Shown here: positions 6,134 to 33,990 of the stretch, one piece after another
Layout of the letters: the number at the start of each line of letters is the position of its first letter
Numbering within the stretch: position 1 is the stretch's first letter
From: Gossypium raimondii
Taxonomy: Eukaryota > Streptophyta > Magnoliopsida > Malvales > Malvaceae
Direction of reading: 5' to 3'
DNA length: 64,000 nucleotides
Assembly: GCF_025698545.1 (NCBI RefSeq)
Contig: NC_068571.1
Location: 51,245,733 to 51,309,732, forward strand
The notes under the pieces: model-generated
Databases searched by the model: none
What the model was told of the DNA's origin: nothing
Seen by the model: the letters and a program-made list of their open reading frames with translations, nothing else
Made by a program: the position numbers and the translations under genes

Positions 6134-7073
6134 TTAGGCATCAAGAAGATAAGCATCGATATTCTTGGTCAAGCACATCATGTAGCTGATGTACTTGTCT
6201 GGATCAGGGATGTTCTCGTTTTGCTTTTCGAATTCCATAGTCCATTTCACCAAGCTCCCCTCACCCATGGGCGTGATGTTAAAGATGCTCCTCCAACTCT
6301 TATAATAGTTCAAGATTTGACCCTCCACCATTTTGAAAACCATTGTCTTGTTTTCGTCGTCAACGTTCTCAAGTATCTCTTTAACCATTTCAGACTTACC
6401 TACAACACGCATTAATTAGCCATACAAGAAGTATATATCATATGCTTCACATTGTGTGGAAAGCGCGCAAAAGTATTTTAGAATATTTTAGAGTCTATGT
6501 ATTAGGAGTCAAATTTTATTTAGTTTTTTTATTAAAAAAAAGGACAAATCAATCTTTTTACTTTAGATTAAAGAACAAATTGGTTCTTCCGTTAAATATT
6601 TCATCAATTTTGACTATTAAAAATTAATTCTTGTACATTAGTATAAAGTACTTATGGCATGTCATGTGTCATTGTCTAATTATTCTATTAACTACGTCAG
6701 TTTTTAGCGGTAAAAATGGATGAAAAATTCAACAGAAATAATTTATTTGCTCTTTGATCTAACGTACTAGTTTACCCCTTTTTTTTGTTAGTAGAATGGA
6801 CAAAATATAATCGGATTCCTAATACACGAGGAAAACATATTTATATACGTGATTGTGTGAGCTATATATTTGATGGTATTTACCTTCGGAAACATAAGAC
6901 CAAAGCCTGACGCAGCCGACAGTATTCCAATCACCTTGAAGAAGTTTGCCATCTATCATTAATCCGTTGGACATCTTTGGTATCAAATGGGATTTGATCC
7001 TGAATGTATTGTAGAACTTCTCAGCTGGTGTCTTGATCACTATTTGGCAATCCATCTTCTTAAGTTGAGCCAT
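6134..7073 (-). CDS. MLP: MLP-like protein (major latex protein / Bet v 1 superfamily)
   Basis: Two exons, 7073-6884 and 6399-6134, joined by a GT-AG intron, give 456 nt and 151 residues, the usual MLP size. The start MAQLKKMDCQ is the first ATG after a TATA box at about 7150. The MLP-type glycine loop LQGDWNTVG lies at residues 45-53 and is followed by VRLWSYV; the C-terminal helix region (YISYMMCLTKNIDAYLLDA) is intact. The single intron falls after the codon for Glu63, splitting a Gly codon, the standard place in this family. Family proteins are small cytosolic hydrophobic-ligand binders linked to development and stress; the ligand here is unknown. The intron carries a MITE-like insertion. 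No truncation is seen. Which MLP paralogue this is cannot be told from sequence alone. Confidence 0.92.
6526..6790. mobile_element. MITE-like element in the MLP intron
   Basis: About 265 bp with inverted-repeat ends: 'tagattaaagaacaaatt' near 6563 against 'tttgctctttgatctaacg' near 6747. A second copy of the same family sits at 31660-31913, sharing both ends and the GTCA-type centre. There is no coding capacity. Boundaries are approximate, and because no clear target-site duplication was found the transposon superfamily is left open. Confidence 0.6.
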
Positions 7074-7593: not shown

Positions 7594-10060
7594 CTATGGC
7601 CAGCTAAAAGGTATCCAGGACTCCGCTGCTATGATCACCATATTTTCCACCAGATGTAGATGATGGCGATTTAGTTGACAAAGTATAGTCATCCCCTGTT
7701 GGAGGTGTTGTATATCAGATCGTAACGGTTCCAACCTCCGGTTAGTGTTAACATGATTGTGAAAATTTGCTTTCCACTGCTTATTAGGAGTCTTGCAACA
7801 CCAACACATGATACTGAGATTATGAAAGCGAAATAAGATAGAACGTACCAATAACAGTCGACAATGTAGTTTTGAGTCTCCTCTAATCGTCCTCCATATG
7901 ATGATTTGATTGCCTTTGGCATCCATGGCTAGGGCTGCACCACCAGTTAGGCCCGTACTATGATTGGAATGCCTCCTCAATACCAGATGCCTGACATCGT
8001 AGTGAGGAGACAGTGCAGCGGTCATGTTGGACGGTAGATTCTTCCTGAAAAGCTCTCAAGATAGAAATGGCAAAATAGTTAGCCTGAAGAATACACTTCA
8101 CTGGAGAAGGTTTTGTGTGCGAAAAAACACATGCATTTCGACTTTTCCAGATAGTCCAAACGTTTGGAGCAATATAAGAAAGAAAATGCCTGATTCGTCG
8201 GGTCCTGGTGGAATATCGTATTCAATATTTGGTACAGCCATAGTTAGATACTAGCTTCTTCAATGGTGTCAAGTCTAAAATTCATGTACCTTCCAAACCA
8301 AATAGCCTTCGCGAAAGAACACTCTTTGAACAAACGGTTCACTGACTCAGATTCCCTTTGGCACATGGGGCAGATATCATTTTCAACAATGCCTTGATTT
8401 TTGAGTTCAACATACAAGGGCAAACAATTATTTAACAACTTCCAAACAAATATTAGTACTTAATATGGTAATCTCAATTGCCATAGCTTTCTCCAATTGC
8501 AGTGTTGGTTGGTAGGTAAGGAATGAGGGAATGGTCCGTAGCTAGTCATAAGCACTTTTAACAGAAAAATTACCGCTATGATTGTATTTCCAGACATATT
8601 TATCCTTACCTCCAACCATGGAAAAACCCCGTGAACACAACTCTTAGAGTGTATCCCACATTTGATTATTAGAGTCTATGTATCTGTGACAAGTAGTACT
8701 ATAGGGCAAATAATTGGGATTAGTTTTGGTGAACAAAAGAATTGGATAGAATAACAACATTTTCCCCTTCCCTTTTACAAATATCACGTCCGCATGGAAG
8801 GTTGTTCAAAAACCAAGAGTCAGATTGCCAGAGAGGCAAATCAAGAAAATGGTGATCGTGACAGTATTTCCCAAGTAAGATGCTTCAGGTAAAGTTCTCC
8901 TGATCTATTAGCATTCTCCAAGCTTTCTTGCAGAGAAGAGCTTCATTTAAGAGCTCGGTACCATGGACACCCAACCGACGTTGTTCAACAGGGGAGCATA
9001 ATTTTTTCCAAATTGACGTGTAATTTCCACTTGTTTAATGCAAGACATGACATATAGAGGAATAGATGACAACGCAAATTTTATAAGATTATATCTTCCC
9101 CATAGAGACAGTCACTTGGCTTCCCATCCTGCAAGCTTAGTCTGAAGTTTGTGGATCATATGACGAAAGGTACGGCAGATAGCAAATGTATTTTTTAATT
9201 TCGCCGAGAGATTCTAGACCTCTTTATGACTATTTATTTGATGAAAAAGACAAGAGGTATGGTTTCGTATATTTAGTGATTGTGAAATTAATTTCTTGGA
9301 TACTAAAAAATAAATAAGATAGCCAAATATGAAATTGTCATGATAAGAAAAGATAAAGTGACACCGTAGTTTGTCAACTGTAGAAAGAATATTCTTTATG
9401 ACATTGTTTTGCGAAAGAATGGATAATTGAACATGGTGAGAATGTTAGTGTTGTGAATTTTCAAGACACAAATAAAAATAAAGTTTCATCATGTGATATG
9501 GACAATTAACATAGTTATGTTGAAAATTTGAAAATTTAGGGATGAGATACAAGCCTATAATATTTGATGGTCTAAAGAGATAACAGTACTGTGTAAGAAT
9601 ATGTAGTAGCATTAAAGAACAAGTATTCGTCATTTGCAAATAGGAGATGGAAGACGGGAGGGCATGTCCTTGCGATGCAAATACCCCGTATCACTTGCTC
9701 AGATTCAGCTTTTAAGAGCAATAATGAAAGTATATTTTGACAAAAGGGATCTCCCTAACGTAGGCCTCTACTAGGGACAAAAGGCTCCGTACGACTACCA
9801 TTAATGAGGACTTGATATGTTAACTGAACTAATGCATTGGTGGACAAGCTGCTTCCAATGCTTGTTAAATCCCATGATTTCCGTTACACAAAGCAAGAAA
9901 TCCCAACTTATGCGACTACACGTCTATTTTGAATACCCTTCCCTGTCTTCTTTCACTAGATGGTATAGATTAGTTCACTCCCGAGCAGCACGTTATCCAT
10001 GATGCCTCCACCATGAATGAGTGCATTCTGAAAAGGGGTAATTAACTGCTTCATGAAAGG
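7594..10060 (-). mobile_element. Decayed LINE (non-LTR retrotransposon) remnant
   Basis: On the minus strand the order of domains fits the 3' two-thirds of a plant L1-type LINE. Reverse transcriptase comes first: LITPFQNALIHGGGIMDN at about 10045-9985, VLINGSRTEPFVPSRGLR*GDPF at about 9810-9740, and LLFANDEYLF at about 9645-9615. A zinc-finger region (ICPMCQRESESVNRLF, 8375-8325) follows, then a worn RNase H-like end with MDAKGNQIIIWRTIRGDSK near 7925-7865. The conserved GLRQGDP motif has an in-frame stop in place of Gln and the catalytic FADD reads FAND. Frames are broken throughout, so the element is dead. The 5' ORF is not seen. Confidence 0.8.
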
Positions 10061-10939: not shown

Positions 10940-13900
10940 CATAATTTCAATTAATACCAAATCACTAACTAACAAAAAAGAAGAAGGAAATACTAGTACT
11001 AAATAGAACTATGAATAATTTGTCCATAAAACTAAACAAAAGCAAACCAAACCATGTGAGGTTGTAATCAAAATAGACAATCACAAAATGAAATTAGGTA
11101 TTAGTATGTATTGATATCATTATATTTCAATATACTGATTCAAATTTGTCAGTACTTTTAAATATTTTCATAGATATATAAATTATTTTTGTATATAATA
11201 TATTTAATATACTAAACTTAATCAAATGATTATATTTTAATTTAAATGAAATAATAAAAAAATCAAGATATAAGGTAAAAAGTCAATTTAAAATATTAAA
11301 AACTTGTACCAATCGGTCTGAACCACTCACCGGTACAAGACAATATTGATCGAAACGAAGTTTAAACTAGTTACTAATGATTTAAAACCGAAATGTAAAT
11401 ACACCGACTAATAAGATTGATACCGGCATGATACCTAATATCATGGTTGTAATGTAATGAAGCATATGGTTGAAAGAAGAAAACTCAAGAAATTAAAACT
11501 AGTTTGCACTAAAAGAACCTATTGAATCAATGATACAAGAAAGATAAGGACATTCAAAAGAAGTCATCAGATACTATAATTATACCATCATGTTCAAAGA
11601 GCTTCTGTTTCTCATAAAAGGGTCTTGAATCAGCCTAAAAAATGCAGAGATGAAACAAAATTCATATTACATTGACTTGTAATCTCTCAAACATATATCT
11701 ACATATGAATAAACTATAACCAGAAAACATGTAAGAAAATGTTACACCAAAAAGTAAGAGATAATAAGAGATAATATTGTTCAAGCAGCACACCTAGGTA
11801 GATGGAGTCCACGATGATTTACCGGTAATGGTTTTGTTTGATATGTAAAGCAAGCTCATCTTAGTCCCGTTGCTTTCTCTCTTTCTGTATAGATTGGAAA
11901 ATTCGTGCCGCTGATTCAGTGGCTGACCTTGGATTATGAGGCACAACTCGTATCACTCTCGTCCTCTGGTCAGTTTCGCGAGGCTTCAAGGCTCCCTCCA
12001 GATTGGCTGGAGCTGTAGGGAGAAGTGAAGGTGTATTTTTCCCTTCAGAGGTGCTACGGGTCCCGTCTTTCTCTGTTCTCTCACTAGGACTGCTTGCATT
12101 ACATCGTTGTTGCTCAGCATCTTTAGATGCTTGATACTTCGTGACAGGAGGAATAGCACCATTCTTCTCGTTCGGCAGATTAGATGAACTTTGTTGCTGC
12201 ATGTTGAAGTTAGCTCCACTTCCAGATAACTGGACACTTTGGGCATGGGACCCCACTCCGGCAAATTGGGTCATCTGTTCCATGGCAGACCCTGAGAATG
12301 CCGGGTTCATGACTGGCATACCATAAGGAGGAAAGTAAGAGTGACCGCCTAAAGGAGTGCCTGGTAGAGCCCCAAGTCCTTGATGAGGAGTTGGAACTCC
12401 GTAAGCTGATGTCATGAAGTTTCCGGTCATTGGATTTTGTCCAAAAGGTCCACAGCCTCCACAAGCAGATTCCATGAATCCAGGTCCCGGATAGGGCTTG
12501 TATATCAGTCCTTCAGAGGGGGACATGACAGGGACCAGCCACTGGTGCCCGAGCATTTGATTGAAACACCAAGGGTTCATTTTGTTATCACCATTAGCTG
12601 GAGAAAGTGGTGAATTTCCAAGGAAAGGCCCATTATTTGAAGGCTGACTACCATTTTTCACAGAAGAGAGGGATGTCCTACCAACCGCATTTTCTGCTGA
12701 ACATTCCATTTTACAACTTATCTTCTCAGCATCATCTTTGCGATTATTTTGTGGCACTGGTTTTACAATTAACTCTTGAGGAAGCTTCTTTACAGGAGAG
12801 TCTTTGAAAGAAGGTTTGCTCAGATATGCTGCATCCTCAAGCAAGATATGTGGTGATCCAGCAATTAATCTCTGAACCTGTTTCAACCCAAAGTATGAAG
12901 CATTTTAACTATATATATTCAAGTATCTTCATGTGTATGCATGTATCCATATGAGAACCGGAAGAAATGGATAAACAAGTCAAGGATCACCTTACCTTAA
13001 TCAGCCTATGTAACTCAAACACTTGTACAGCAAATACTCTTTGTTGACTGTAGAGAGTAACAGGAGTTTATCAACAAAATGTTGCAGAGGTCATAATAAA
13101 CAGTTTTAACAGAAAAAACTGCTGGCAGGTAAAAGGGGAAGATCAACTGGATACTCATCACAATAATGCTTGAAAGCATCAACTGGACACAGTTCTGATA
13201 TTATGCATACAAAATTTGCTTCATATGAGGACAAGGTTGCTAAAGTAGTTCACAGGTAAAGAGTTTAAGCTTATTATTCCTCTCACTTTTCCTCAAATCC
13301 TTGTTTTATGATGTGGGGAGGGGTAGTTTGTAACTCATTCACAACTGAATCTCCATGGGATGAAACCTTCTAAAATAACATCAGGCTCAACAACATACCT
13401 TATGCACTTTGTAGCAATTAGATATTTCTAAAGCAGAATCCAACAAATAGAAGTCAATTTCATGCAAACAAATATGCTAGCATTATGTTGAAGAAAACAC
13501 CAAAATAAACAATCTAGCTATATCTATAATAGTCAATCAGAAGAATTCTTCAATGTCACCTTTGAATCGGCCAAATATAAAAACATTAGTTTCAGTACAA
13601 TAAAATCAAAGCCAAAGCCACATGCAATTGTTGCAAATAGAATATTATCAATTTATAGAATGTACACAAACAGATATTTCCTTGCATAGATATATGTGCA
13701 AAATTGAGTAAAACATATCGTAGATGTACAACAATTAGCAGCTGAAACATAGGACGGAACTATTAATCTAAATTGCAGTAGACCTATAGATCCCAATACC
13801 GCATAAATCCTTCACCACAAAGCCCAAAATATCAAGCTAGACAAAATCCCTTTTGCCAAAATATCCATCACCAACTTATAAAGAATTTAAAACATTTCCC

Positions 13901-16800
13901 AGTTACCCTCCTCCAAGATCCACCCAACATTAGCTCCAGGGATAATCCTCCGTTGCTCCTTCTCCTGCTCAAGACCTCAGGATAAAAGGTGAAGAAAGCT
14001 GCACCAACCCAAGACAAGAATATATCTCAAATGAAGATAAGCAGACACGGAATAAGAGGAGTTCTGCTGTCTCAGTTGTTGCTTGGACAAATTAGGATAG
14101 CCCTCTCCCTGCTAGAAGATGATCCATGGTTAATACGTTATTGAGGGCCTCTGAACACATAAAAATGCCACTTTGAGCAGAACTCCGGATCATTACTTCT
14201 CCCTCCTTCAAAGCCATATTACTATGCTCCATAATATATCATTTATTCCATATTCTACTGTCAGTAACCTAAATTGCATTCAGCATACTAAAGTCAACTT
14301 TAACCTGTGATAATAACTAGAATAGTGATCCTAGTCAATGCCCAATTGTAGTTTCAACCAAGAGAAAATATTTAAAATGCTTAATGTCTTTACAGCTATT
14401 TCTAATTGTCTAACTTTCATAATGATTGAAAGCAATGCTTCTATTTCTACATAATAACCATGGGGCTAAAAGTTACAGCTCGATACTGTAACAAGTGAGA
14501 ATACAATAGAGCAAACCTCAGAACATATAATCACATTTAAACTAATAGTAACATACCATTCAATTAAATTATCATGAAAACATTGCATGGATAAATGCTA
14601 TGTCAATATATCAAGTCAGTACAATAATTTCACTATTGGAACGGGCATCACATTGAATCATCTAATCTTAATATATACTACACCTCTTGTTCCACCCCTC
14701 CTCCTAAGGGACCTAAAAATTTTCTTGTTTAAGTTCTCATTCTCAAAGGCACAAAACTTGCACTGTTTTTTCGTCATATGTACGAGTGTATAATCTGAGT
14801 AAGTATTCACAGAGATAAAAATCCAGAAAAGTGAAAAAAATCCAAGACGATATACTTAACAATGAATGCTTACTTAACAATAGCTCTTCTTGCTTTCCAG
14901 AAACGCTTCTGACCTATTATTCCCACCACGTCATCAGCAGAGATATCCAAGCCTGATACAATATCCACCGCAGAGGTCTCAGAGACATCATCGCTTTTAT
15001 CTCCATTTGCCCACTGCAGTGAGCCACAAGTCTTGTCTTCATGGCATTCACTGTCATTATTAGTTTCATCAGGAACACTGCGATTCCCCTCTGAATAAGA
15101 CAGACTTCTCTTCCGGGAAAGGGTTCCCTCACCATTTTCTTTCATCAAGGAAGCATCATCAGCACATCCATTATCAACTGGTTGTCGGTCAGCTCTCAAC
15201 TTTTCTACCAAGCAAGCATCAATTTCACGTGAACCACTTAATCTAGATGCTGGAATCTCTTCACAATATTGATCAGGGGACACATTGTCCTCTTTGGCAT
15301 ATCCATCAATCGTTTCTCTAGTTGATGAATTTGCAGCAGGTTTTATTGAGCGCTCCCTACTTGAGCACACTTGAAAGCTCCCTTCACTCTGATTTCTTAC
15401 CTCCTTTCTTGAACCGACACCAGAAGAGCTACATCGATTTGTATCATTATCACGAACATTACAGACTTTTTCCCCATCAAACCCTTCCTTATTTTTGCAA
15501 TGTTGCAGACCTGTCTCTGAATTAACAAAAACAGGAACCAAGAAATCATCTTCATCTCCAACCTTCTTTCTTGGTTCAAGGCGTGCCATTGGAGCATTTA
15601 CACTTGCTCCTCCATGCTGTCGTGTATGAATCTTCTCAGCTTGATTAGTAGATGCCGAATTCGATACACGAGAAGGAAAAAGCCTATTTTGAAGGCAACT
15701 TCCCTGCAGGCATCAACCAGTTACAGCATGAATCACCATGACTACAAAATCACTATAGTTCACGTTTCATTTGCCTAAATACTAAGGAAATAACTAATCC
15801 CTCACCAAACCCACAACAGATATATAAAACAAGTCATAAAGAAAGGAATTCATCCCTTGTGAACCAATAAGAATAACAAAGAGACATGTAGATAAATTGC
15901 AAACACACACCAACCTGGCTTGAGGAAGTAGGAGGAACCAAACTGCTTGAATTACTTGTGTTAAGAGGCAAGAGGCCAGGGTTAAACCTCTGTGAGGGAA
16001 TACTCAGCTGCTCATAAAGGGCCATCTTATTCCTTGGCGGAGCCCTCGGCCCTCCTTTTTCTGTATCATTAACATGAAGCCTAGGGAACATAGGCTCCAT
16101 ATTCTTCTCATCATCTTTCCCTCTTTTCATTTATCTTGTTTTCGATATCAAAATTTCAACCCAAATAATAATAATAACACAATTACCAAAACCCACTTTT
16201 GCATAAAATTCACGAAGATACCTAATGAACTACATCACCAAAGTTAAAACCCACCACTAAAAGCTCAAAATTTAACAAACCCATAAAGCAATAACTTAAA
16301 TTGGTCGATGCCCAGACTTCAAAATGCACCTTTGACTTGGATTGAACAGTCTTTACAATAACGCAGAGAATAACCAGATCGGACAATGGTGATTTGCAAC
16401 TCAAACGAAGAAAAAGGGGAAAAAGGAAATAAATTAAGGAAATAAAGAATCGTTTGGATATGGAAAAATTAAAAATGGTATAGTTGATAAAGAGAAGATA
16501 GATTAAATGAAAACGGTGAGAAAGGAGAAGGAAATTGAAGTGTAAGGTTAGGGATTTCTATGAAGAACAAGAAGAAGAGGCAACCATGGTAGGTCTGAGA
16601 AAAAGGGCAAAGCGTTTAGATTTCGGGCCCACTTTTGGATGGAACTAGAAGCTCCTTTTCCTCTTGGATTTTCTATATTTTACTCTCTGCCATGGTTGGC
16701 CCCCAACAATTCTTATCCATTTGAAATTTTTTAACCATTGAGTACTTTTCTTGCAAAAATACCCTCCTACCCCCCATTGGATTTTGCGTTCACATTTGGC
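10940..16800 (-). repeat. Left arm of the large ELF3 inverted duplication
   Basis: Reverse complement of 19560-25230. The match covers the whole ELF3 gene, its introns, about 650 bases upstream of the start codon and about 900 bases beyond the stop codon. Inner edge: 'attttgcgttca' at about 16785-16797 against 'tgaaggcaaaat' at 19560-19571. Outer edge: the block containing AACCTCACATGG and its reverse complement (about 11060 and 25110), fading near 10940. Divergence is visible as many substitutions and small indels, so the duplication is not recent. Confidence 0.9.
11861..16130 (-). CDS. ELF3: EARLY FLOWERING 3-like protein, copy 1
   Basis: Four exons, 16130-15915, 15703-14874, 13047-12996 and 12877-11861, total 2115 nt and 704 residues (Arabidopsis ELF3 is about 695). 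Conserved blocks are all present: [10 protein letters not shown]...MFPRLHV with [16 protein letters not shown] (residues 1-48), [19 protein letters not shown] at the end of exon 2, [17 protein letters not shown] in the tiny 52-nt exon 3 running into VQRLIAG, and [20 protein letters not shown] at the C-terminus. ELF3 is the scaffold of the nuclear evening complex (with ELF4 and LUX), repressing growth and flowering genes at night. The Gly/Pro/Met-rich stretch in exon 4 corresponds to the prion-like region but has only three consecutive Gln. The reading frame is intact. Compared with copy 2 it lacks one codon in exon 2 and differs at many exon 4 positions. Confidence 0.96.
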
Positions 16801-17029
16801 ACCATTTCTCGCTTAGACCTTTTTAAGTCTTTCTCTCTGGCGTCTTCCTGTTTTAATAAGAGGGTAAACCGGTAAACCACTTTGATTCATTTAACTACTA
16901 GTTTTTTTTTGTGTGTTACCTCAATATTACTAAAATTGTGTATGTGCGGCTACCCAGTCTAATATGAAGGAGATTTTAAATATATATATATATAGGTTCA
17001 AAAAATAAATTTGAAAAAAAAAATAAGAT

Positions 17030-17290
17030 TTGTTTAAAAAATAAATCAGGCCTCATGTAAGGTTTTTTTGTCTAGACCCGACCTAAATTTGTAATAAAAA
17101 AAACTCTGGTGTTTTACTGTTGCTTTCCCACTTTTTACCTTGTTTTGCTATCATTTCACTATCATATTGCTATTATTTTGTGGTTAACGTTTGGAATTTG
17201 TATAATATTTGTTTTATTGTTAATTTTGCTACTATTTTAGAAGTATTTGCGTGTTAAATTGTACTTATTTTAGTGTTATCTAAATATAAA
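17030..17290 (+). repeat. Fragment of the same repeat as 27508-28133
   Basis: Shares with 27690-27850 the ordered phrases 'tttactgttgctt', 'ttgctatcatttc', 'tatattgctat(t/a)', 'attttgctactattttagaagtattt'. No coding capacity. It appears to be an interior piece without both terminal repeats. Confidence 0.6.
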
Positions 17291-17329
17291 TATTCGAATA
17301 CTTTTCTCTTTATCTTGATGCTTGGATAT

Positions 17330-17760
17330 CTCTCCATTGAATCTTGAAGTGTATTTATATCAATGAACAAATATGTGGACGTTTATAATTGTTGGGATGA
17401 ATTCTAACCGTTGAAAGCATTCTCGAGACATGGCTAAAAAATAGCTATTATATAGCCATTGGCAAACCGAGACATGAATTGTGTCTCAAGACAATCAACC
17501 AATTGTCTCTAGACATACTACACAATGTCTCAAGACAAGCAGCTCTTGAAGCATATTTTTGCTTCGAATTTTTATGTCTATAGTCATATGTCTCGAAATT
17601 TGCATACCATAATCTCTTAAAAACATTTTAAAACATTTTGGTATTAACTCAAAAATATTTAGATAAATTAAAACATATTTGAAACATATTTTTAAGTATT
17701 TTGTAAGTTTTCGAAAATGTTTGATAAAAGTTTGAATCATATTAATAGAATTTTCAAATT
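17330..17760. mobile_element. Possible LTR fragment
   Basis: A stretch with repeated 'gtctcaagacaa'-type words (17480-17540) followed by AT-rich sequence with 'aaaacattttaaaacatttt'. The order resembles the segment at 43740-44130 (a 'gaagtgt...tttatacc' leader, 'ccgttgaaag', then the AAACA-rich block). No protein-coding remnant. Assignment is weak. Confidence 0.3.
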
Positions 17761-17843
17761 TTTTTATGATACCCTTTGCATAGCAAGTGGATGTTGAGCT
17801 TCCAATTAATGAGAGAACCCCATCAAATGTTTAAAGCAAGTTA

Positions 17844-17992
17844 AAGTGAGTTTGGATGGGCGATTAGGTGCGGTGCAGTGCGGTGAGGTGCGTTTAGCTT
17901 ACTTTTTGTCTTACGCTACAGTATCTAATCTCACCGCCACCGCTGTTTTTACACTAATCATAGGTAAACGTACTGTCCATCCAAACTCACCC
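17844..17992. mobile_element. Small MITE with TTA target duplication
   Basis: A 149-bp element with terminal inverted repeats AAGTGAGTTTGGATGG (left) and the complement of GGGTGAGTTTGGATGG (right), 14 of 16 matching. It is flanked by TTA at 17841-17843 and 17993-17995. A three-base TTA/TAA duplication fits the PIF/Harbinger (Tourist) type. The interior is unusually GC-rich for the area (gcggtgcagtgcggtgaggtgcg) and is itself partly self-complementary. Confidence 0.75.
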
Positions 17993-19559
17993 TTAGTAGA
18001 ATAAGGAGATTGAATTGGGGAATTTCCAATTTCAACCCAACTATCTTATTAGCCAGACCGAATCCAAACCACAAAGCTCATATAATGATAGATGACAGAA
18101 ACTGAGGGAAAATTGACATCAACACACTAGCAATTGAGTAATTAGAATTTGGGGATTTAGGGTTTGCTGGCCTTAACGAGAGGAAAAAACTATTAAGATG
18201 ATTAAAGAAACAACAAATGTGAGAGCTAGAGAATTATTTATGTTTTTACTAAAGACATCAACATTTATTTAATATTATATTTTTGTAAACTCGAGAAAAT
18301 ATATATTTAACTAAATAATTTTGTATATGTATTTTGAAAAGTAAATTTAGCTGTATATGTCTTACTTTGTTTAATATTATTTTTTTATAATTTTAAAAAT
18401 ACGAATTTTGGCGATTGTGTCTTATCTCGATTGGTACGGACCTTATTGCCAATGCATGAGGACGTAGATTCGAGATTTATGAGTTGAAAAGGGGTTACGG
18501 ATAGTTTTAGATATTGTGTCAAAAAAATAGATACGATCTTGTTAAAAAAATACAGATTTCAACGCATTCAAATATTTAATATATTTTATTTTGAAAATTA
18601 GAGGGTTAGACTTAGTTTAAGCTTATTATAAAAATAAATAAATTTATCATTAAATTAAATTAAAAGGTCAATATTATTATTAAAATAGAAAGAGACCAAA
18701 AAAAAAAGTTGTGTTTGTTTCACTCGAAATAATTTTTAAAAATAGATTGAATTTTTGAAAATTTTATTATCTTTGGATGATTCTTTGTTAAATATTTTCA
18801 TTGTTTGAAAAATTTTCTGAAAATCATTTTTGAAACATGTTTTCAATGAAACAAACACAATATAAATTATATTTGTCACAAAATATATTTAGCAACCGAA
18901 ATTTGTTTTATAATAAGATAATATTTTATAATAACTAATATCTTATATAGATTTAATAATAATCAATGTCTAATTAAAATTTAATTTGAAGTTATACGAG
19001 AGTGAATGGTACAACATTGAAAGTGGAAAGGATAAATAGAATTAAATGGGATTTAAAATACCTGTATTTGTATTATTAAATTATTCATATTTTATATTAT
19101 AAAACATTTATTTATCTAATATATTTTTCTAAAAATAAAATTTAATATAATTCAACTTAAAATTTAAAATAGTTACGGGTTTAAAATTTATTATTGAAAT
19201 AAATTTGTAATATTAAATAATTTTATTAAAATAAATTATGTTAATAATTTATTTATGATTAAAATATAAATGTGAATGATTAATACTATTGAAAATTATT
19301 ATATTTAATAATATTTTTAAAATATTTAAAATTTAGTTTAAAATTTATTAATATAATAATATTTGATTATATAAAATGAATTTACACATTTTTCCAGAAA
19401 ATGACATACATTTTCCAAAAAGAAAAATTGTCAATAAGTTATTTTGTATTCACCAATTTATTTTGAAAAAAAAATTAATCAGAAATTATTTTCTATTAAA
19501 CAATTATAAAAATGATAATTTGTATGGAGTTATTTTGGGTGAAATAAAGACATGAAAAA

Positions 19560-22500
19560 ATGAAGGCAAAATCCAATGGTGGGTAAGATAGGGTATTTTA
19601 GCAGGAAAAGCACTGAATGGTTATAAAATTTCAAATGGATAAGAAATGTTGGAGGCCAACAATGGCAGAGAGTAAAATATTGGAAATCCACGAGGAAAAA
19701 GGAGCACCTACTTCTACTTCCATCCAAAAATGGGCCCATAATCTAAACGCTTTTCCCCTTCTCTCACACCAACCATGGTTTGCTCTTCCTCTTCTTCATA
19801 CAAATCCCTGACCTTACTCTTCAATTTCCTTCTCCTATCTCACCCTTTGCATTGAATCTATCTTCTCTTTATCAACTTTACCATTTTTAGTTTTTCAAGA
19901 TCCAAACTATTCCCCTTTTCCCCCTTTTCTTCGTTTGAGTTGCAATTCACCATTTCCCATCTGGGTATTCTCTTCGTTATTGCAAAGACTGTTCAATCCG
20001 AGTCGAAGGTGCATTTGGAGTCTGGGTATCGACCAAATTAAGCTATTTCTTTATGGGTTTGTTAAAATTTGAGCTTTTAGTGGTGGGTTTTAATTTTGGT
20101 GATGTGGTTCATTAGGTATCTTCGTGAATTTTATGTAAAATTGTGTTGTTATTATTATTTTGGTTGAAACTTTGACATAGAAAACAAAATAAATGAAGAG
20201 AGGAAAAGATGATGAGAAGAATATGGAGCCTATGTTCCCTAGGCTTCATGTTAATGATACAGAGAAAGGAGGGCCGAGGGCTCCTCCAAGGAATAAGATG
20301 GCCCTTTATGAACAGCTAAGTATTCCCTCACAGAGGTTTAACCCTGGCCTCTTGCCTCATAACACAAGTAATTCAGGCAGTTTGGTTCCTCCTACTTCCA
20401 CAAGCCAGGTTGGTGTGTGTTTGCAATTTATCTTATGTCTCTTTGTTTTTCTTATTGGCTCATAAGGGATTAATTCCTTTATTTATGACTTGTTTTTATA
20501 CATCTGGTGGGGATTTGGTGAGGGATTAGTTATTTCCTTAGTATTTATACAAATGAAACGGGAACTATAATGGTTTATGCTGTAACTGGTTGATGCCTGC
20601 AGGGAAGTAGCCTTCAAAATATGCTTTTTCCATCTCATGTATCGCATTTGACATCTACTAATCAGGCTGAGAAGATTCATACAGGCCAGCATGGAGGAGC
20701 AAGTGTAAATGCTCCTATGGCACGCCTTGAACCGAGAAAGAAAGTTAGAGATGAAGATGATTTCTTGGTTCCTGTTTTTGTTAATTCAGAGACAGGTCTA
20801 CAACATAGCAAAAATAAGGAAGGGTTTGATGGGGGAAAAGCCCGTAATGTTCATGATAATGATCCAAATCGGTGTAGCTCTTCTGGTGTCGGTTCAAGAA
20901 AGGAGGTAAGAGATCAGAGTGAAGGGAGCTTGCAAGCATGCTCAAGTAGGGAGCGTTCAATAAAAACTGCTGGAGGTTCATCAACTAGAGAAAACATTGA
21001 TGGATGTGCCAAAGAGTTCAATGTGTCCCCTGATCAAGGTTGTGGAGAGATTCCAGCATCTAGATTAAGTGGATCGCATGAAAATGATGCTTGCTTGGTA
21101 GAAAAGTTGAGAGCTGGCAGACAACCGGTTGATAATGGATGTACTGATGATGATGTTGCCTTGGTGAAAGTGATTGGTGACGGAACTCTTTCTCGGAAGA
21201 GAAGCCTGTCTAATTCAGAGAGGAATCACAGTGTTCCTGATGAAACTAGTAATGACAGTGAATGCCATGAAGACAGGACTTATGGCTCACTGCAGTGGGC
21301 AAATGTAGATAAAAGCGATGATGTCTCTGAGACTTCTGTGGTGGATACTGCATCAGGCTTGGAAATCTCTCCTGATGACGTGGTGGGAATAATAGGTCAG
21401 AAGCGTTTCTGGAAAGCAAGAAGAGCGATTGCTAAGTAAGCATTCATTGTTAAGTATATTGTCTTGAATTTTTTTCGCTTTTCTGGTTTTTTATCTGAGG
21501 GTACTTTTTCTTTTTCTGTGAATACGTACTCATATTATATACTTGTATATATGAAGACAAAACAGTGCAAGGTTTGTGCTTTTGAGAATGAGAATTTATA
21601 CAAGAAACTTTTTAGGTCCCTTATGAGGAGGGGTGGAGCAATAGGTCTAGTCTATATTAAGATTAGATGATTCAATGTGATGCCTGGTCCAGTAGTGGAA
21701 CCTTTTTAGATTGATATATTGACATAGACAGAATTTATCCATGCGACGTTTTCATGAAAATTTAATTGAATGGTGTGTTACCATTAGTTTAAATGTGATT
21801 ATATGTTCCTGAGGTTTGTTCTATTGTATTCTCTCTTGTTACAGTATCGAGTTGTAACTTTTAGCCCCATGGTTGTAAAGACATTTTGCATTTTAAATAT
21901 TTCCTCTTGGCTGAAACTACAATTAGATATTGACTAAGATCACTATTCTAGTTGTTATCACAGGTTAAAGTTGACTTTAATATGCTGAATGCAATCTAGA
22001 TTACTGGTAGTAGGAATATGGAATAAATGCTATATTATGGAGCATAGTAATATGGCTTTGAAGGAGGGAGAAGTAATGATCTGGAGTTCTGCTCAAAGTG
22101 GCATTTTTATGCGTTCAGAGGCCCTCAATAACATGTTAACCGTGGATCATCTTCTAGCGGGGAGAGGGCTATCCTAATTTGTGCAACCAACAACTGAGAC
22201 AGTGGAACTCCTTTTATTCCTTGTCTGCTCATCTTCATTTGAGATATATTCTTGTCTCGGGTTGGTGCAGCTTTCTTCACCTTTTATCCTGAGGTCTTGA
22301 GAAGGAGAATGAGCAACGGAGGATTATCCCTGGAGCTAATGTTGGTGGACCTTGGAGGAGGCTAACTGGGAAATGTTTGAACATTTTTGAAGTTGGTGAT
22401 GGATATTTTGGCAAGAGGGATGTTCTCTAGCTTGATATTTTGGGTTTTGTGGTGAAGGATTTATTCGGTTTTGGGATCTATAGGTCAATTGCAATTTAGA

Positions 22501-25230
22501 TTAATAGTTCCGCCCTATATTTGTTTGGTTTTGGTGAAGGATTCACTTGATTTTGCACATATATCTATGCAAGAAAAATATCTGTTTGTGTACATTCTGT
22601 AAGTTGATAATATTCTATTTGCGACAAAAGCATGTGGCTTCAGATTCGATTTTATTCTACTGAAACTAATGTTCTATATTTGGCTGCTCCAAAGGTGACA
22701 TTGAAGAATTTTTCTGATTGACGTTTATAGATGCCTTCAGATTGATTATTTTGGTGTTTTCTAGCATATCTGTTTGCATGAAATTGACTTCTGGTTGTTG
22801 GATTCTGCTTTACAAATATCTAATTGCTTCAAAGTGCATAAGGTATGTTGTCGAGACTGAGATTATTTTAGAAGGTTTCATCCCATGGAGCCATGGTTGT
22901 GAATGAGTTACAAACCACCCCTCCCCAAATCATAAAACAAGGATTTGAGGAGAAGTGAGATGAATAATAAACTTCACCTCTTTACGTGTTAACTGCTTTA
23001 GTGACTTTGACCTCATATGAAGCAATATTTGTATGCTAAATAACAAAACTGTATCCAGCTGATGCTTTCAAGCATTATTGTGATGAGTATCTAGTTGATA
23101 TTCCCCTTTTACTTGCCAGCAGTTTATTCTGTTAAAACTGTATTATTATGACCTCTGCAACATTTTGTTGATAAACTCCTGTTACTCTCTACAGTCAACA
23201 AAGAGTATTTGCTGTACAAGTGTTTGAGCTACATAGGCTGATTAAGGTAAGGTGATCCTGACTTGTTTATCAATTTCTGCTGGTTCTTATATGGATGCAT
23301 GCATGCACATGAAGATAATTGTATTTATACAGTTAAAATGCTTCATACTTTGGGTTGAAACAGGTTCAGAGATTAATTGCTGGATTGCCACATCTCTTGC
23401 TTGAGGATACTGCATATTTGAGCAAACCCTCTTACAAAGACTCTCCTGGGAAGAAGCTTCCACCAGAGTTAATTGTAAAACCAGTGCCCCAAAATAAGCT
23501 CAAAGATGAAGCTGAGAAGCTAAGTCATAAGATGGAATGTTCAGCAGAAAATGCTGTTGGTAGGACATCCCTCTCTTCTGTGAAAAATGGTAGTCAGCCT
23601 TCAAATAATGGGCCTTTCCTCGGAAATCCACCACCTTCACCAGCTAATGGTGATAACAAAATGAACCCTTGGTGTTTCAATCAAATGCTCAGGCACCAGT
23701 GGCTGGTCCCTGTCATGTCCCCCTCTGAAGGGCTGATATACAAGCCCTATCCAGGACCTGGATTCATGGGATCTGCTTGTGGAGGCTGTGGACCTTTTGG
23801 ACAAAACCCAATGACTGGAAACTTCATGACATCAGCTTACGGAGCTCAAGCTCCTCCTCATCAAGGACTTGGGGTTCTACCTGGCACTCCTTTAGTCGGT
23901 CACTCTTACTTTCCTCATCATGGTATGCCAGTCATGAACCCAGCATTCTCAGGTTCTTCCATGGAACAGATGAACCAATTTGCTGGAGCAGGGTCCCATG
24001 CCCAAAGTGGCCAGTTATCTGGAAATGGAGCTAACTTTAACATGCAGCAACAAAGTTCATCTAATCTGCCGAGTAAGAAGAATGTTGCTATTCCTCCTGT
24101 TGTGAAGTTTCAGGCATCTAAAGACACCGAGCAACAAAGATGTACAGCAAGCAGTCCAGGTGAGAGAGCAGAGAAAAACAGGACCTGTAATACTGCTGAA
24201 GGAAAAAATACACCTCTTATCCTTACAGCTCCGGCCAATCCACAGGGAGCCTTGAAGCCTAACGAAACTGACCAGAGGACAAGGGTAATACGGGTTGTGC
24301 CTCATAATCCAAGATCAGCCACCGAATCAGCAGCACGTATTTTCCAATCTATACAAAAAGAGAGAAAGCGACGGGACTAAGATGAGCTTGTTTTACATAT
24401 CAAACAAACCATTACCGGTAAATCATCTTGGACTCCATCTACCTATGTGTGCTGCTTGAACAGTATTATCTCTTACTTTTTGGTGTAACATGTTCTTGCA
24501 TATTTTCTGGTTATAGTCTATTCATATGTAAATATATGTTGAGAGATTACAAGTCAATGTAATATAAATTTTGTTTCAACTTTGCATTTTAGGCTGATTC
24601 AAGAACCTTGTATGACAAACATAAGCTCCTTGAACATGTTGGTATGATTATAATATCTGATGGCTTCTTTTGATTGATCATTGGTTCAATATATTCTTTT
24701 AGTATAAACCAGTAGTTTTAGTTTACATTACAACCATGCTAGTAGGTTTCGTTTAGGTAGGTACCGATCGTATCAGCCGGTACTTATCGTTTTGGTTTTA
24801 AACCGTTACTAACTAGTTTAACTAGTTAGTGTCAAAATTTCAGTGTATTTTCTGCCTGTTTATTATTTTGACCAATATTGTTTTGTACCAGTGCATAGTT
24901 CTTAATACTTTAAATCAATTTTATATTTTTATTTTTATTATTACATTTAAAAATAAAATATAATCATTTAACTAAGTTTAATAAATAAATAAATTTATAT
25001 ATAAATATATATGAAAAGTACTTATAAAATACTAATAAATTTGAAAAGATATACCAAAACAAAAACGATATGTTGATGGAAACAATACTATCTTATCTTA
25101 ATTACAACCTCACATGGCTTAGTTTGATTTGGTTTTGTTTTGTTTTATGGACAAATATTCATAGTTCTAATTAGTTCTACTTTATTCAAAGAAAAACAAA
25201 TTAAGATGGTTGTTAATTGAAATTTTGAAG
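19560..25230 (+). repeat. Right arm of the large ELF3 inverted duplication
   Basis: Partner of 10940-16800 in reverse orientation, collinear from the upstream flank through all introns to about 850 bases past the stop codon. Intron 2 (21436-23194) aligns with copy 1 along most of its length with small indels, so the whole genomic block was duplicated rather than a spliced copy. Confidence 0.9.
20193..24380 (+). CDS. ELF3: EARLY FLOWERING 3-like protein, copy 2
   Basis: Four exons, 20193-20408, 20603-21435, 23195-23246 and 23364-24380, total 2118 nt and 705 residues. Splice phases are identical to copy 1. All ELF3 blocks are present: N-terminal MFPRLHV...[12 protein letters not shown], the [29 protein letters not shown] junction across exons 2-3, and the C-terminal [20 protein letters not shown] block (about 672-691). 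The prion-like segment in exon 4 carries only QQQ at residues 595-597. Like copy 1 it should act as a nuclear evening-complex scaffold. Against copy 1, exon 1 differs at 3 of 72 residues while exon 4 differs much more, for example [21 protein letters not shown] against [21 protein letters not shown]. Both frames are intact, so both may be functional. Confidence 0.96.
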
Positions 25231-29104: not shown

Positions 29105-32100
29105 TTATTCGGAGTCCGATTCCATATTACTATTACCCATAGCCTTCAAACCTCTTGGTCTCTGCAAACATTACATTTTGTAATATTTCAGCCTTCTAAC
29201 CATAACTATAACAAATCATTATAACTCAATTGTTACCTTCTTTGAGATCTTCTTCTCCCTGACCTCGTATCGTTCAAGTGTTAAATCGCATAGCCATGCC
29301 CCCGGGCTTACCAGCTGTACAATATATTTTCCCCAATTAGAATTTCAAAGGCTTAAATCTACTCAATAATATAATCTTTTTAAATATTATCAATTTTTTT
29401 CCCATGTAGTAGAAAAGAAAGAGGAAGATTAATCATTGCTTGTGTTTTTATGTATGCAATGTGGTCCATCCCGGAAGACAACTGGAAGTACAAGAAGGGA
29501 AAAGTAACCCTATAACAACAACATATTTGCACAAATGCCCTCCAGTTCAGCAACGGACTGGTTGCTCTTCATTTACAAAATAATCAGTATCTCCCGAACC
29601 GTCCAATTCAAACCGGATTCTATTGACTTCTTCTAAGCTTCAAGTCTGCTGTATAAGAAAACCCCCTTTTTCTTGAAGTAACACGTGTATGTGTGATGTG
29701 TTGTGCCGGTTCAAATCTCCTATATATTTTTTATGGTAGGCGTACATCATAGCAGTACACAACATTATGGGTGACAGCCTCGCAATCACAGCCTTTCCAG
29801 TGGACCGCTAACACTTGGATTAATCTAATTAGATACTCATCCACTCCTCCACTGACACGTAGACGACTACGTTTCATTTATTGTCGCTTTACCTACTCCT
29901 TCAAAGCCTTTTCTTTTCTTTTTCCCTTTTTCTTTTTTCCTAAGAGGATGGCCTAAAAATAATAAAAGCGAAACAACCCATTATTTTGACGTAATTCACG
30001 GGTAGTCTCCCCTACTTTAATTTTTGTACCTCATCTATTATCCCCATACAATTTAGTAAAAATAATTCCGTTTTCAAATCAAAATCTGCTCTAAATGCTA
30101 AAAACATTCAATTTGCCTAAATTTTTAAAACAAAATTAGGAATCAATTCAAGGAAAAGAGTTCAGAGTTTCTTACGTTGAGGGTACGTTGAATAAATTTC
30201 GCTCGTTTTTTGGGTCTCTGCGGCAGCTTAGATCCTTTAATGGCCATGAAATCTTCTTCTTTCTCTTTATTAGTTAAAGCAATCACAAATTTTGGTGGCC
30301 AAACGATGGGTGGAGCTGCCTCACCGCTTCCTGAAGATGAGCCTCCTTTTTTGCTGTCATGGGTCATATCCGAAGATGCCGCTGATTTGTTGTTGTGGTG
30401 GTGGTGGTGATGGTGGTGATGGTGGTGGTGGTGGTGGTTGTTATTGTTATGGTTGTTACCACCAACTCTCTTATCGTGCGCACCCCTATCTGGCGAAGCA
30501 AATCCCCTTACACCACCGTTGTTTTGGCCTCTCATAGCACTGGAATTCTCAGAGTTCCTGGAAAACATTAACAAGAATTAAGAGGAATAGAAATACTAAA
30601 AAAAAAAAGTATCTTAAAAAACACATGGTAAAAAGAACCAACTGCTGTAACTTTTAAAAAAGTAGAAAAAAAGAAAAGAGAAAAGGTTTAAGTTGTAAAA
30701 CTAGAATTACAAAAATAACCTTGGGAGTGATCTAGAATTCTAAATCGGTGGGTGAAAGAGAGTGGATAGAATCTGTACAAGTATTTGCGTAGAAAATGGG
30801 GGAAGGGATTTTCTTTTTTTATAATTGGCTTTTCTTAAAGAGAAGGGTGAGACTTTGAGATTGGCTTTTAAATAGGAGAGTTGTTAAATTTCTTTCCTTG
30901 CTTTGATGGGAAAGTTTAGATTATTAGAGAGAAAGAGATGAATTGGATATAAGGAAAGCACAGGTGGTTTTAAGGCCGTAGGATTAAAGGCATATTTTTT
31001 GGTTTTTGTAGTGGATTAAGGTTACGTGTTGAAATATGGGTTGGTATTAGAAAGTGGGACCAAATTCCTAAATCAGATTTATAATCCGACGGTTGATAAA
31101 GTTGGGATCAAAATAGACTATTTGTAGTCATGTGGTGAGGTAACTGTCCATTCTCCATGGTTGATGTTTCCAAGGAGTCCCCCTGATCAGACTAAATAGC
31201 TCTAGGAAAGAATCGTGTACATTAATTGAGCTAAGTCTAAAGCAGGACAAGCACCATCGAGAAACTATAATAATTAATAAAAAGAACATATAATAATAGT
31301 AATTACTAGAAGATAAAACTACGGATACCATCAAATAGTAATAATAATTATCAAAACTCAAAACAAGATCCAGCACAGATTTTCGTCTACGATGGAGGAA
31401 CACCTCGACAAACATAGAGACCCCATCATCAGTTTCAATTGATGAGTCATTTATAAACATCCCTTTCAGCTTTTTATGAAGACCATGGCATACTTGATCC
31501 TACTGATAAAATCTTTCCTTATCTAAACTTTTTTCGATAAAAATAAGAATTACAACACATAACTCATTAGGTTTTTTTCTTTTTGAAATATCACAAAACT
31601 ATAATTTGATAATTGATATTTGACTCATGTACTAAAAATTAAATTATATTTTACCTTTCTATTAAAAAAGAGTAAATTAATTTTATATATTAGATTAAAG
31701 AGCAAATTAATTCTTTATCAAAATTTTTATCCATTTTCACTGTTAATGGCTAACAAAATAACCAAATAGTTATATTTAACATGTCACATATACCTCATTC
31801 CAATGTACAAGGACAATTTTAACAATAAAATAGATAAAATTTTTAATAAAATGACTAACTTACTCTTTGATCTAACGTATTGTAATTAATTTACTCATTT
31901 TTTTAAATAAAGAAAACAATATAATCCAGCTCCTAGTATTTCAGAGTAATTTTAACTAATTTGGCCAATTATGTTTTGTAATAACTTAAAATCTAGAAAA
32001 ATGATCCCTCAAACAACACCACCTTCAAACAAAGACGCATAATAGAAGCGGTGAACCAGAACCTACTTGAAACTAGAGCAATCCTTTATTTTTTCTGTGA

Positions 32101-33990
32101 CCATATTATTAAGATCCTCGTGAAAAAGCAAAAGCATAGCCCTATAATTCATGTGTTTCTATTTTTAATCACTAAATTAGCATGAATAACCAGATTCAGT
32201 CAGATCTACGAAAAAGAAGTAAAACCCTAAACATAGAAGGCGCCATTCATAAACTCACCATTTGTTTCTCTCCAGAACCATACACTGGCGCCCACCTGAC
32301 CAATTGGGGAGTGCACAAAATAAAAGCCTCTTAAAAATAATTCAGCCCTGAATGCATCATTCATATAATGTTATGTAATGTTAGAATAGCAAATCTGAGG
32401 CTGAAATGTTATTTTATATACGAGAGCCATTAAATGCATTCACCAACTAGTCAAAAGGCCCATCTGGAAATATCCATCCAAATTTGTGTAGGTTTTAGGA
32501 GTGTCCGTGGCATTGGCAACCAACTATAAAGATTATCCATTCTTGGAACAAACCTTTACGCTACCAGGAAAAATGAACAGTCAACGAACAACCTTGATCT
32601 TTGTAGCATGATCGAGAAGGTTTGTCTTTTTTGTCTAGACTTTTTAAGTGTCCGATTTCTCAATTTCTCTATTCACAGGAGTTAGTTTACTATTAAAGTT
32701 GAAAAATACGAGCAGTGGTGGACTCAGATAAAATTCTGAGGCTTAATAAAATTTCAAAATTTTCGAGAGTTTGAATTTCTTTTTTAAAAAATTGGGGTTT
32801 AATTAATTTTTTGTAAAATTAATGAAAATTTTCAAAGATTTTAAGAAAGTTTAATTAAAATTTTAAAAATTAAAAAGTACAATGAGAATTTTTAAAATTT
32901 GAGAGGACCTAATAAAATTTTCTAAAATTTTACAAAAATAAAAAGATTTTAAAATATTAGGGGCTTGGGGATCTGCGTCTAGTTGTGAGAAAATATTTTT
33001 AAATTTTTTATTTTGTTTTATAATTATCTTTAAAACTGCTTAAAATATGTATTTCAAATATGATGTTACAAAGTAAAAAGTTTACTAAAGATAAAATGAT
33101 AATTTCACTAAAAGCATATCTCCAAAAAGCTAAAACTAAAATTTTAACTTTTTAATTTAGATTAAAATCTCGATTTAAAAATAAATTTTGATTTAAAAGA
33201 GGCATGTTTATCAATTTTTTATTTAAAATCGTAATTTAAATAAAAAAGTACTTCCTTAACCTAAAATCTTCTCCCTTATCCATGACCTCAGAAAACTCAT
33301 CTCATCAAAGGATATATACTAGTCAAATAAGCTTAATCCAGATCAGTAATTTCTGCTTTTGAAGCAGGGGAAGAAATTATTTTAAGAAATTTCAGACATG
33401 ATGAAGTGGGGCCTGGAAATGATGGGATCTAAATCTTTATAATCACTTTCTCACGCCAATTTGAACTAAAAACCCAAGGCAAAAACAAGTGGCAAAAGAA
33501 ACCAGACATCAAAAACTAACCAACACCGCCCATTATTACCCCATCACAAGTGAGCGTATCTTAAACGCGCCCAACACTCAAGGAGAAGAAGTGTAAAATC
33601 GTAAATTACACAGTACCTGAGAACGCGCTGAGATGGCGGAGCTTGAGGAGAAGCAGGTCGTTGACGGAGGTTAAAATATCCATTCCCGTGATTATTATTG
33701 CTTGGTTGATTCGAAGAGTCTTTGTCGGCCCTCACGACTCGGCGGTCGACTCGAACCGTTGTTCGATTAACCGGGCCGGACTGATCGTCTTTGACTTGTA
33801 TCTTCATACACCTCAGACGCTTCCGATTTCCCCACTGCAAAACGAAATCAGAAGACGACGCCGTTTGCTTGGCCGGATCCGAGCTGGATCTTAACAATCC
33901 GCCGTCTCCTGCGCCTCCGTTTCTATCTCTGCTGTAGTTGATGCTATTACCAATACCACTGTTATTGATCCTTAATGCGTCCTTCTCCAT
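29105..33990 (-). CDS. DUF1639 family protein with a 14-His run
   Basis: Four exons, 33990-33617, 30557-30176, 29314-29237 and 29161-29105, total 891 nt and 296 residues. The family signature is at the C-terminus: IKGSKLPQRPKKRAKFIQRT, then LVSPGAWLCDLTLERYEVRE in exon 3 and KKRPRGLKAMG across exons 3-4. The N-terminal part is low in complexity (Ser, Asn, Gly). Residues 160-181 are Asn-rich flanks around 14 consecutive His (166-179). DUF1639 proteins are plant-specific, basic at the C-terminus and of unknown function; a nuclear location would fit the basic KKRAK stretch but is inference. Intron 1 is about 3.06 kb and contains a MITE. The ATG at 33990 is chosen because the frame continuing upstream starts only at a non-ATG codon. 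Confidence 0.9.
30395..30436 (-). repeat. CAC/CAT triplet run encoding 14 His
   Basis: Fourteen consecutive CAC or CAT codons on the minus strand (12 CAC, 2 CAT), bordered by AAC/AAT codons for Asn. The interruptions by CAT suggest a run that has aged somewhat since its expansion. It lies in exon 2 of the DUF1639 gene and keeps the frame. Confidence 0.97.
31660..31913. mobile_element. MITE-like element in DUF1639 intron 1
   Basis: Same family as the MLP-intron element at 6526-6790. It shares 'ttagattaaagagcaaatt' near the left end and 'ctctttgatctaacgta' near the right end, with AT-rich inverted-repeat ends. No coding capacity. Boundaries are approximate. Confidence 0.6.
31914..33616 (-). 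other. Remainder of the long DUF1639 intron 1
   Basis: No second gene is visible inside the intron. AT-rich, with an AAAATTTT-laden part at 32700-32960 that reads like old repeat. The donor site is CTCAG|GTACTG at 33617/33616 and the acceptor TTTTCCAG|GAACTC at 30558/30557. Confidence 0.5.

What the first reader, a model, noticed from the sequence alone, without database searches (positions are those of the whole stretch)
10940..25230. Head-to-head inverted duplication of two intact ELF3 genes
Two complete four-exon ELF3 genes with identical splice phases (704 and 705 residues) face away from a 2.8 kb spacer, inside arms of about 5.7 kb that match through introns and flanks. ELF3 is a dosage-sensitive clock scaffold, so a kept, adjacent, divergently transcribed pair is unusual. 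Divergence is visible everywhere, so this is not an assembly echo of one gene.
Basis: partly seen in the sequence, partly recalled or inferred. Interest (0 to 1): 0.8.

Follow-up and report, generated by a model that had tools for sequence, protein, structure and literature searches.

The report
Back-to-back pair of ELF3 clock genes
A cotton-like plant genome carries two complete, slightly different copies of the day-length clock gene ELF3 side by side in opposite directions; the pair looks real and both copies look intact, but it is a local gene duplication of an ordinary kind rather than a new type of system.

Summary
Arms 10994-16792 (-) and 19561-25179 (+) are 85-88% identical around a 2768-bp spacer. 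Each holds an intact four-exon gene with GT-AG introns in the same phases, 704 and 705 residues. Ks is 0.16-0.17, Ka/Ks about 0.39; derived sites are 9 versus 10. The host looks like Gossypium: a cadinene synthase exon matches PDB 3g4d at 95 of 97 residues.

Window DNA at 29-49 kb is collinear with C5:3.43-3.44 Mb at pooled Ks 0.58, near the published cotton decaploidy value of about 0.52 (PMC6324235). C5 keeps only an ELF3 fragment, oriented like copy B. So one polyploidy copy decayed, and B was later duplicated in inverted orientation to give A. Two more intact ELF3-type genes (C5, C9) and a broken one (C2) exist, so several copies are not exceptional. Published GhELF3 (705 aa, four exons, pI 8.84) resembles B (pI 8.87). 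Most likely the copies are partly redundant evening-complex scaffolds. Dosage, expression and silencing are untested. Ordinary in kind, mildly interesting.

The parts
10994..16792 (-). left arm of the inverted duplication (copy A)
   Evidence: blastn self-comparison, 85.0 and 87.7% identity
19561..25179 (+). right arm of the inverted duplication (copy B, in the inferred ancestral orientation)
   Evidence: same relative orientation as the C5 fragment
11861..16130 (-). ELF3-A gene, 4 exons: 15915-16130, 14874-15703, 12996-13047, 11861-12877; 704 aa
   Evidence: gene model with GT-AG introns and no internal stop
20193..24380 (+). ELF3-B gene, 4 exons: 20193-20408, 20603-21435, 23195-23246, 23364-24380; 705 aa
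   Evidence: gene model; pI 8.87 against 8.84 reported for GhELF3
16793..19560 (.). spacer between the arms, 24.8% GC, about 60% of it dispersed repeats
   Evidence: whole-genome search: query parts 189-951, 1042-1213, 1683-1747 and 1913-2597 of 2768 recur elsewhere (40 of 5486 candidates scored); GC
16131..16792 (-). upstream region of ELF3-A shared with B
   Evidence: 5' flank, 65 differences in 623 aligned sites
19561..20192 (+). upstream region of ELF3-B shared with A
13976..14150 (-). candidate alternative (poison) exon in intron 2 of A, 175 nt, early stop; a lead only
   Evidence: the local drop in divergence is not significant (P 0.119)
22119..22293 (+). candidate alternative (poison) exon in intron 2 of B, 175 nt, early stop; a lead only

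Best explanation
This is a local inverted duplication of a whole ELF3 gene in a Gossypium-like genome. It arose after the cotton-lineage polyploidy. Copy B sits in the ancestral position and orientation, and copy A is the inverted newcomer. Shown: both copies have open models with proper splice sites; their pairwise Ka/Ks is well below 1 and change is symmetric; and the polyploidy partner of this ELF3 on C5 is reduced to a fragment. Inferred: both copies are transcribed outwards from similar upstream regions and make working ELF3 protein, the scaffold that joins LUX and ELF4 in the evening complex, so they act as partly redundant, additive doses of the same clock repressor.
For: Arms and spacer. 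Intact models. NG86 Ks 0.173 (bootstrap 0.137-0.216), Ka 0.068, Ka/Ks 0.39 (0.29-0.52); ML and YN00 Ks 0.160 and 0.163. Of 19 sites where the C5 and C9 paralogues agree, A and B differ and one of them matches, A is derived at 9 and B at 10. Of eight segments, Ka/Ks is lowest at the N-terminus (0.12) and the C-terminal end (0.13). Eleven blastn blocks between 29.1 and 49.3 kb are collinear with C5:3.4336-3.4434 Mb, and an ELF3 fragment at C5:3.4546 Mb has B's orientation. Ks of four neighbour segments pooled is 0.579; the C5-C9 ELF3 pair has Ks 0.607; published decaploidy Ks about 0.52 (PMC6324235, passages). The fragment is the outgroup: A-B 33 differences, fragment-A 74, fragment-B 67, of 291 sites. 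Passages of PMC8380988 report rhythmic GhELF3 expression, interaction assays with GhLUX1 and delayed flowering on overexpression in Arabidopsis.
Against: No expression data. A pairwise Ka/Ks of 0.39 cannot exclude a recent loss of constraint in one copy, and the segment 200-349 has Ka/Ks 0.80. Ks varies along the gene (0.11 to 0.38 by segment) and noncoding divergence is uneven (variance P 0.001, longest identical run P 0.026, sites left of 11500 left out), so gene conversion may have made the pair look younger. PMC6324235 reports raised evolutionary rates in cotton (passages), so Ks is no clean clock. Left of copy A no collinearity with C5 was found beyond short repeat-like matches, so B's ancestral status rests on one side only. 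One blastn match inside the window range (40452-40643) falls out of order on C5 and was taken as a repeat. The species is inferred, not given.
Confidence: 0.7

Rival explanations
1. The two copies have split roles: one keeps the clock function, the other is drifting or specialised in time, tissue or partner binding.
For: 98 of 703 aligned residues differ; pI 8.22 versus 8.87; segment 200-349 evolves fast.
Against: Change is symmetric, 9 versus 10 derived sites. Shared upstream regions differ at only 65 of 623 sites. The N- and C-terminal segments have low Ka/Ks.
Confidence: 0.25
2. The inverted pair acts as a source of double-stranded RNA that damps ELF3, as recalled for inverted chalcone synthase genes of soybean.
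For: Arms of 5.6-5.8 kb in inverted orientation at 85-88% identity.
Against: Both genes are oriented away from the centre, so their normal transcripts would not form a hairpin; a transcript started outside would be needed. No small-RNA data were available.
Confidence: 0.05
3. The duplication is older than its Ks suggests, and gene conversion between the arms keeps the copies alike.
For: Uneven noncoding divergence (P 0.001) and a 101-bp identical run (13114-13014 in A) that reaches into exon 3; Ks 0.35-0.38 in the last two segments.
Against: Even in that part of exon 4 A and B are closer to each other (33 of 291) than to the C5 fragment (67-74). The unevenness could also reflect constraint.
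Confidence: 0.2
4. Assembly artefact: two haplotypes, or a duplicated contig joined in inverted orientation.
For: No read data could be examined.
Against: Ks about 0.17 and 17.6% divergence in the 3' flank are far above what alleles would be expected to show; indels throughout the arms; the pair's exons are found only at these positions on C7.
Confidence: 0.03

Closest known systems
GhELF3 of upland cotton (PMC8380988, passages and section 14 seen)
   Same: Four exons, 705 residues, pI 8.84 against 705 residues and pI 8.87 for copy B.
   Different: The paper takes the best BLAST hit as one gene; the passages and section I saw mention no adjacent second copy.
EARLY FLOWERING 3 of Arabidopsis (evening complex scaffold)
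   Same: Recalled motifs; a legumain-prodomain exon nearby (the Arabidopsis adjacency is recalled); PMC4035800 (passages) describes a 178-nt stop-bearing exon in intron 2, and a 175-nt candidate is present here.
   Different: One gene in Arabidopsis, as recalled; a local inverted pair here.
Inverted local gene duplicates of plants that trigger silencing (soybean CHS, Arabidopsis PAI; recalled, with a search listing only)
   Same: Two whole genes in inverted orientation.
   Different: Here both genes point outwards, 98 of 703 aligned residues differ, and no silencing evidence exists.

Membership tests
ELF3 (EARLY FLOWERING 3) | Conserved N-terminal and C-terminal segments and the exon 3/4 middle (recalled) | tested here: met
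   Four-way alignment with the C5 and C9 paralogues shows invariant stretches at the N-terminus, exon 3/4 and C-terminus; that these are ELF3 blocks is recalled, and no reference ELF3 sequence was at hand.
ELF3 (EARLY FLOWERING 3) | Four-exon gene of about 700 codons | tested here: met
   GhELF3 has four exons and 705 residues.
ELF3 (EARLY FLOWERING 3) | Match to a curated family model or a solved structure | tested here: inconclusive
   0 Pfam families and 0 PDB chains; ELF3 may simply have no model there.
ELF3 (EARLY FLOWERING 3) | Evening-complex function and rhythmic expression | not testable with these tools
   Needs experiments; reported for GhELF3.
Polyploidy-derived (ohnologous) gene pair | The two copies lie in separate collinear blocks | tested here: not met
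   A and B are adjacent; the collinear place on C5, 3.4546 Mb, holds only a fragment.
Local inverted (head-to-head) duplicate | Adjacent copies, opposite strands, similarity reaching into introns and flanks, younger than the polyploidy | tested here: met
   the age is by Ks only.
Gossypium (host) | 13 chromosomes in about 750 Mb (recalled for D-genome cottons); cotton-type cadinene synthase | tested here: inconclusive
Genus likely, species not fixed.

The most novel reading that the evidence does not exclude
After the cotton-lineage decaploidy the second copy of this ELF3 was lost on C5, and selection then favoured regaining a second dose by a local inverted duplication. Both copies also keep a heat-sensitive poison exon in intron 2, so total ELF3 output could be tuned by splicing as well as by gene number.
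Probability: 0.15. Interest if true: 0.5.

Novelty: new member of a known kind. Interest (0 to 1): 0.3.

Why it matters
Passages of PMC8380988 report that GhELF3 overexpression delays flowering in Arabidopsis and that silencing it hastens flowering in cotton. If a close neighbour copy exists in crop cottons, work that treats ELF3 as one gene may have cloned, silenced or mapped two genes at once. The pair is also a relatively dated case in which a clock gene lost its polyploidy copy and gained a local one, which bears on whether clock genes are held at a fixed dose.

Tried and rejected
Poison exon in intron 2: the least divergent 280-site stretch (15 differences, A 14259-13980) is not significant against shuffles within the intron (P 0.119). 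My splice score used recalled frequencies and gave two true sites of copy A only 1.3, so it decides nothing. A 175-nt stop-bearing candidate in both copies resembles the 178-nt exon reported for Arabidopsis only in length, position and early stop. Kept as a lead.

Clock motifs in the spacer: three GATWCG matches were listed at 18059, 18467 and 18530. By a hand estimate from base composition, made outside any call, about one is expected, so nothing is claimed.

Collinearity to the left of copy A: the window's left part, C7:51.2258-51.2457 Mb (L030, L047) and C5:3.457-3.577 Mb share only short repeat-like matches. A gene next to the C5 fragment has its best match elsewhere on C8, not C7.

Identity by database: no ELF3 model in Pfam and no PDB chain; a text search for four peptides of the window protein found 0 papers. 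A bacterial-code tRNA scan found none.

Literature on an ELF3 inverted pair: six searches listed 25 of 269, 15 of 280, 20 of 793, 2 of 2, 12 of 414 and 12 of 554 papers. No listed title or abstract start describes such a pair; the unlisted ones were not seen, so absence from print is not claimed.
Full report
What is there. The window (G000:C7:51245733-51309732) contains an inverted duplication. A self-comparison gives two collinear inverted blocks, 10994-14394 with 25179-21874 at 85.0% and 14456-16792 with 21874-19561 at 87.7%. Between the arms lie 2768 bp. A global alignment of the arms has 5528 aligned sites, with differences and small indels throughout.

Genes. Joining exons at conserved splice sites gives two intact models. 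Copy A on the minus strand has 704 residues and copy B on the plus strand 705. Exons correspond one to one, all six introns are GT-AG, phases agree, and neither model has an internal stop.

Identity. No Pfam model and no PDB chain matches the protein, so the ELF3 name rests on recalled motifs plus indirect support. The cotton GhELF3 paper (PMC8380988; passages, and section 14) reports four exons, residues up to 705, and pI 8.84. Copy B has 705 residues and pI 8.87, copy A 704 and 8.22. An exon at 47701-48039 matches the legumain prodomain (E 1.1e-19); the closeness of ELF3 and a VPE (legumain) gene in Arabidopsis is recalled.

Host. The genome has 750.8 Mb in 281 contigs. Matches lie on contigs C1 to C13; the known lengths or furthest match positions of these sum to at least 709 Mb (my sum), so no further contig of that size can exist. 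A terpene synthase exon from C5 is identical at 95 of 97 positions to PDB 3g4d, (+)-delta-cadinene synthase XC1. A second one, from C1, has the same enzyme as its best match. That 3g4d is the cotton enzyme, and that D-genome cottons have 13 chromosomes in about 750 Mb, is recalled. I infer Gossypium, D-genome-like; the species is not fixed.

Selection. NG86 gives Ks 0.173 (bootstrap 0.137-0.216) and Ka 0.068, ratio 0.39 (0.29-0.52); ML and YN00 give Ks 0.160 and 0.163. 605 of 703 aligned residues are identical; three gapped codon columns were left out. Of eight segments the ratio is lowest at the N-terminus (0.12) and the C-terminal end (0.13) and highest at columns 200-349 (0.80). Among 19 sites where the C5 and C9 paralogues agree, the two copies differ and one of them matches, A is derived at 9 and B at 10. 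Neither copy shows accelerated change by this count.

Other family members. A protein search of the own genome gave 15 matches: six from the window pair, three from C5:10.56 Mb, three from C9:32.38 Mb, two from C2:10.59 Mb and one from C5:3.45 Mb. The C5:10.56 and C9 genes give intact models of 731 and 694 residues. They share 64% with each other and 40-45% with the window pair, with synonymous sites near saturation between the two groups. The C2 copy is broken and contains retrotransposon-like reading frames between its pieces (the element type is recognised from recalled motifs). The C5:3.45 fragment matches only part of exon 4. I therefore count four intact ELF3-type genes, in line with the two dicot subclades reported in PMC8380988. 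The search scores only the best candidates, so more distant members could be missed.

History. Eleven blastn blocks between window 29.1 and 49.3 kb match C5:3.4336-3.4434 Mb in the same order and reversed direction; one further match (40452-40643) lies out of order at C5:3.461 Mb and was taken as a repeat. The ELF3 fragment at C5:3.4546 Mb lies where ELF3 is expected, on the strand that corresponds to copy B. The neighbour gene at 33.5 kb has one other match in the genome, in this C5 block. Pooled over four neighbour segments (466 codons) Ks is 0.579 (single values 0.465, 0.527, 0.608, 0.903); the C5-C9 ELF3 pair has 0.607. PMC6324235 gives Ks about 0.52 for cotton decaploid paralogues and 0.38 for cotton-durian orthologues, reports raised rates in cotton, dates the event at 13-14 million years in the abstract and cites an earlier value of about 59 (passages). 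So I give no absolute age. The pair's Ks of 0.17 is about 0.3 of the polyploidy value and below the cotton-durian value. In a three-way comparison over 291 sites, ragged ends included, A and B differ at 33, fragment and A at 74, fragment and B at 67. The simplest account: polyploidy, decay of the C5 copy to a fragment, then inverted duplication of B to give A. The order of the last two steps is not shown.

Limits of that account. The left side of A shows no collinearity with C5 in the stretches examined (about 20 kb of C7 left of the window and about 120 kb of C5), and a gene beyond the C5 fragment has its best match elsewhere on C8. Noncoding divergence along the arms is uneven (variance P 0.001; longest identical run 92 noncoding sites, P 0.026; sites left of 11500 left out), so conversion or local constraint may bias the age.

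Spacer. It is 24.8% GC. Query positions 189-951, 1042-1213, 1683-1747 and 1913-2597, about 60% of it, recur elsewhere in the genome. The two start regions were probably closer before these insertions (inference).

How it probably works. Each copy carries about 0.65 kb of shared upstream sequence within its arm (65 of 623 sites differ) and is oriented outwards. I expect both to give evening-phased ELF3 protein that serves the same complex. Passages of PMC8380988 report that GhELF3 expression is rhythmic, that interaction with GhLUX1 was assayed, that overexpression delays flowering in Arabidopsis and that silencing hastens flowering in cotton. For the pair these are inferences: no expression data were available.

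Intron 2. PMC4035800 (passages) describes in Arabidopsis a 178-nt alternative exon in intron 2 that carries a stop, is probably a target of nonsense-mediated decay, rises with heat and falls with cold. Both copies here hold a 175-nt candidate with matching splice dinucleotides and an early stop. The conserved stretch around it is not significant (P 0.119). The C5 and C9 genes have a much shorter intron 2, under 0.5 kb, and no match to this stretch. It is a lead only.

Verdict. The interpretation of a special, dosage-defying arrangement is not shown. This is a local inverted gene duplicate with an informative history.

Noticed in passing
window 13976-14150 (A) and 22119-22293 (B): Candidate 175-nt stop-bearing exon in intron 2 of both copies, similar in length and place to the reported Arabidopsis ELF3-beta exon; statistically unproven.
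   Followed up: partly
L023 (C2:10590600-10600500): A third member of the second ELF3 subgroup, broken by stops and holding retrotransposon-like reading frames between its pieces.
   Followed up: partly
L024:2125-2385 (C5:3.4546 Mb): Fragment of ELF3 exon 4, read as the remnant of the polyploidy partner of this locus.
   Followed up: yes
window 6590-6734: Rfam MIR7502 precursor family matches on both strands (95.9 and 84 bits); the match on both strands suggests a palindromic, perhaps repeat-derived, hairpin.
   Followed up: no
window 6137-6415 (-): Bet v 1 family exon to the left of copy A (Pfam E 1.6e-24).
   Followed up: no
window 8247-8459 (-): Reverse-transcriptase zinc-binding domain, a LINE-like remnant left of copy A (zf-RVT, E 1.6e-11).
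   Followed up: no
window 12191-12199 (A) and 24045-24053 (B): Both proteins have only three consecutive glutamines (MQQQSS) in a region where, as recalled, Arabidopsis ELF3 carries a variable polyglutamine tract.
   Followed up: no
window 30146-30577 and 33547-34158 (-): A DUF1639 gene (Pfam E 5.9e-15) and a second small gene without a family above cut-off, both kept in the C5 block.
   Followed up: partly
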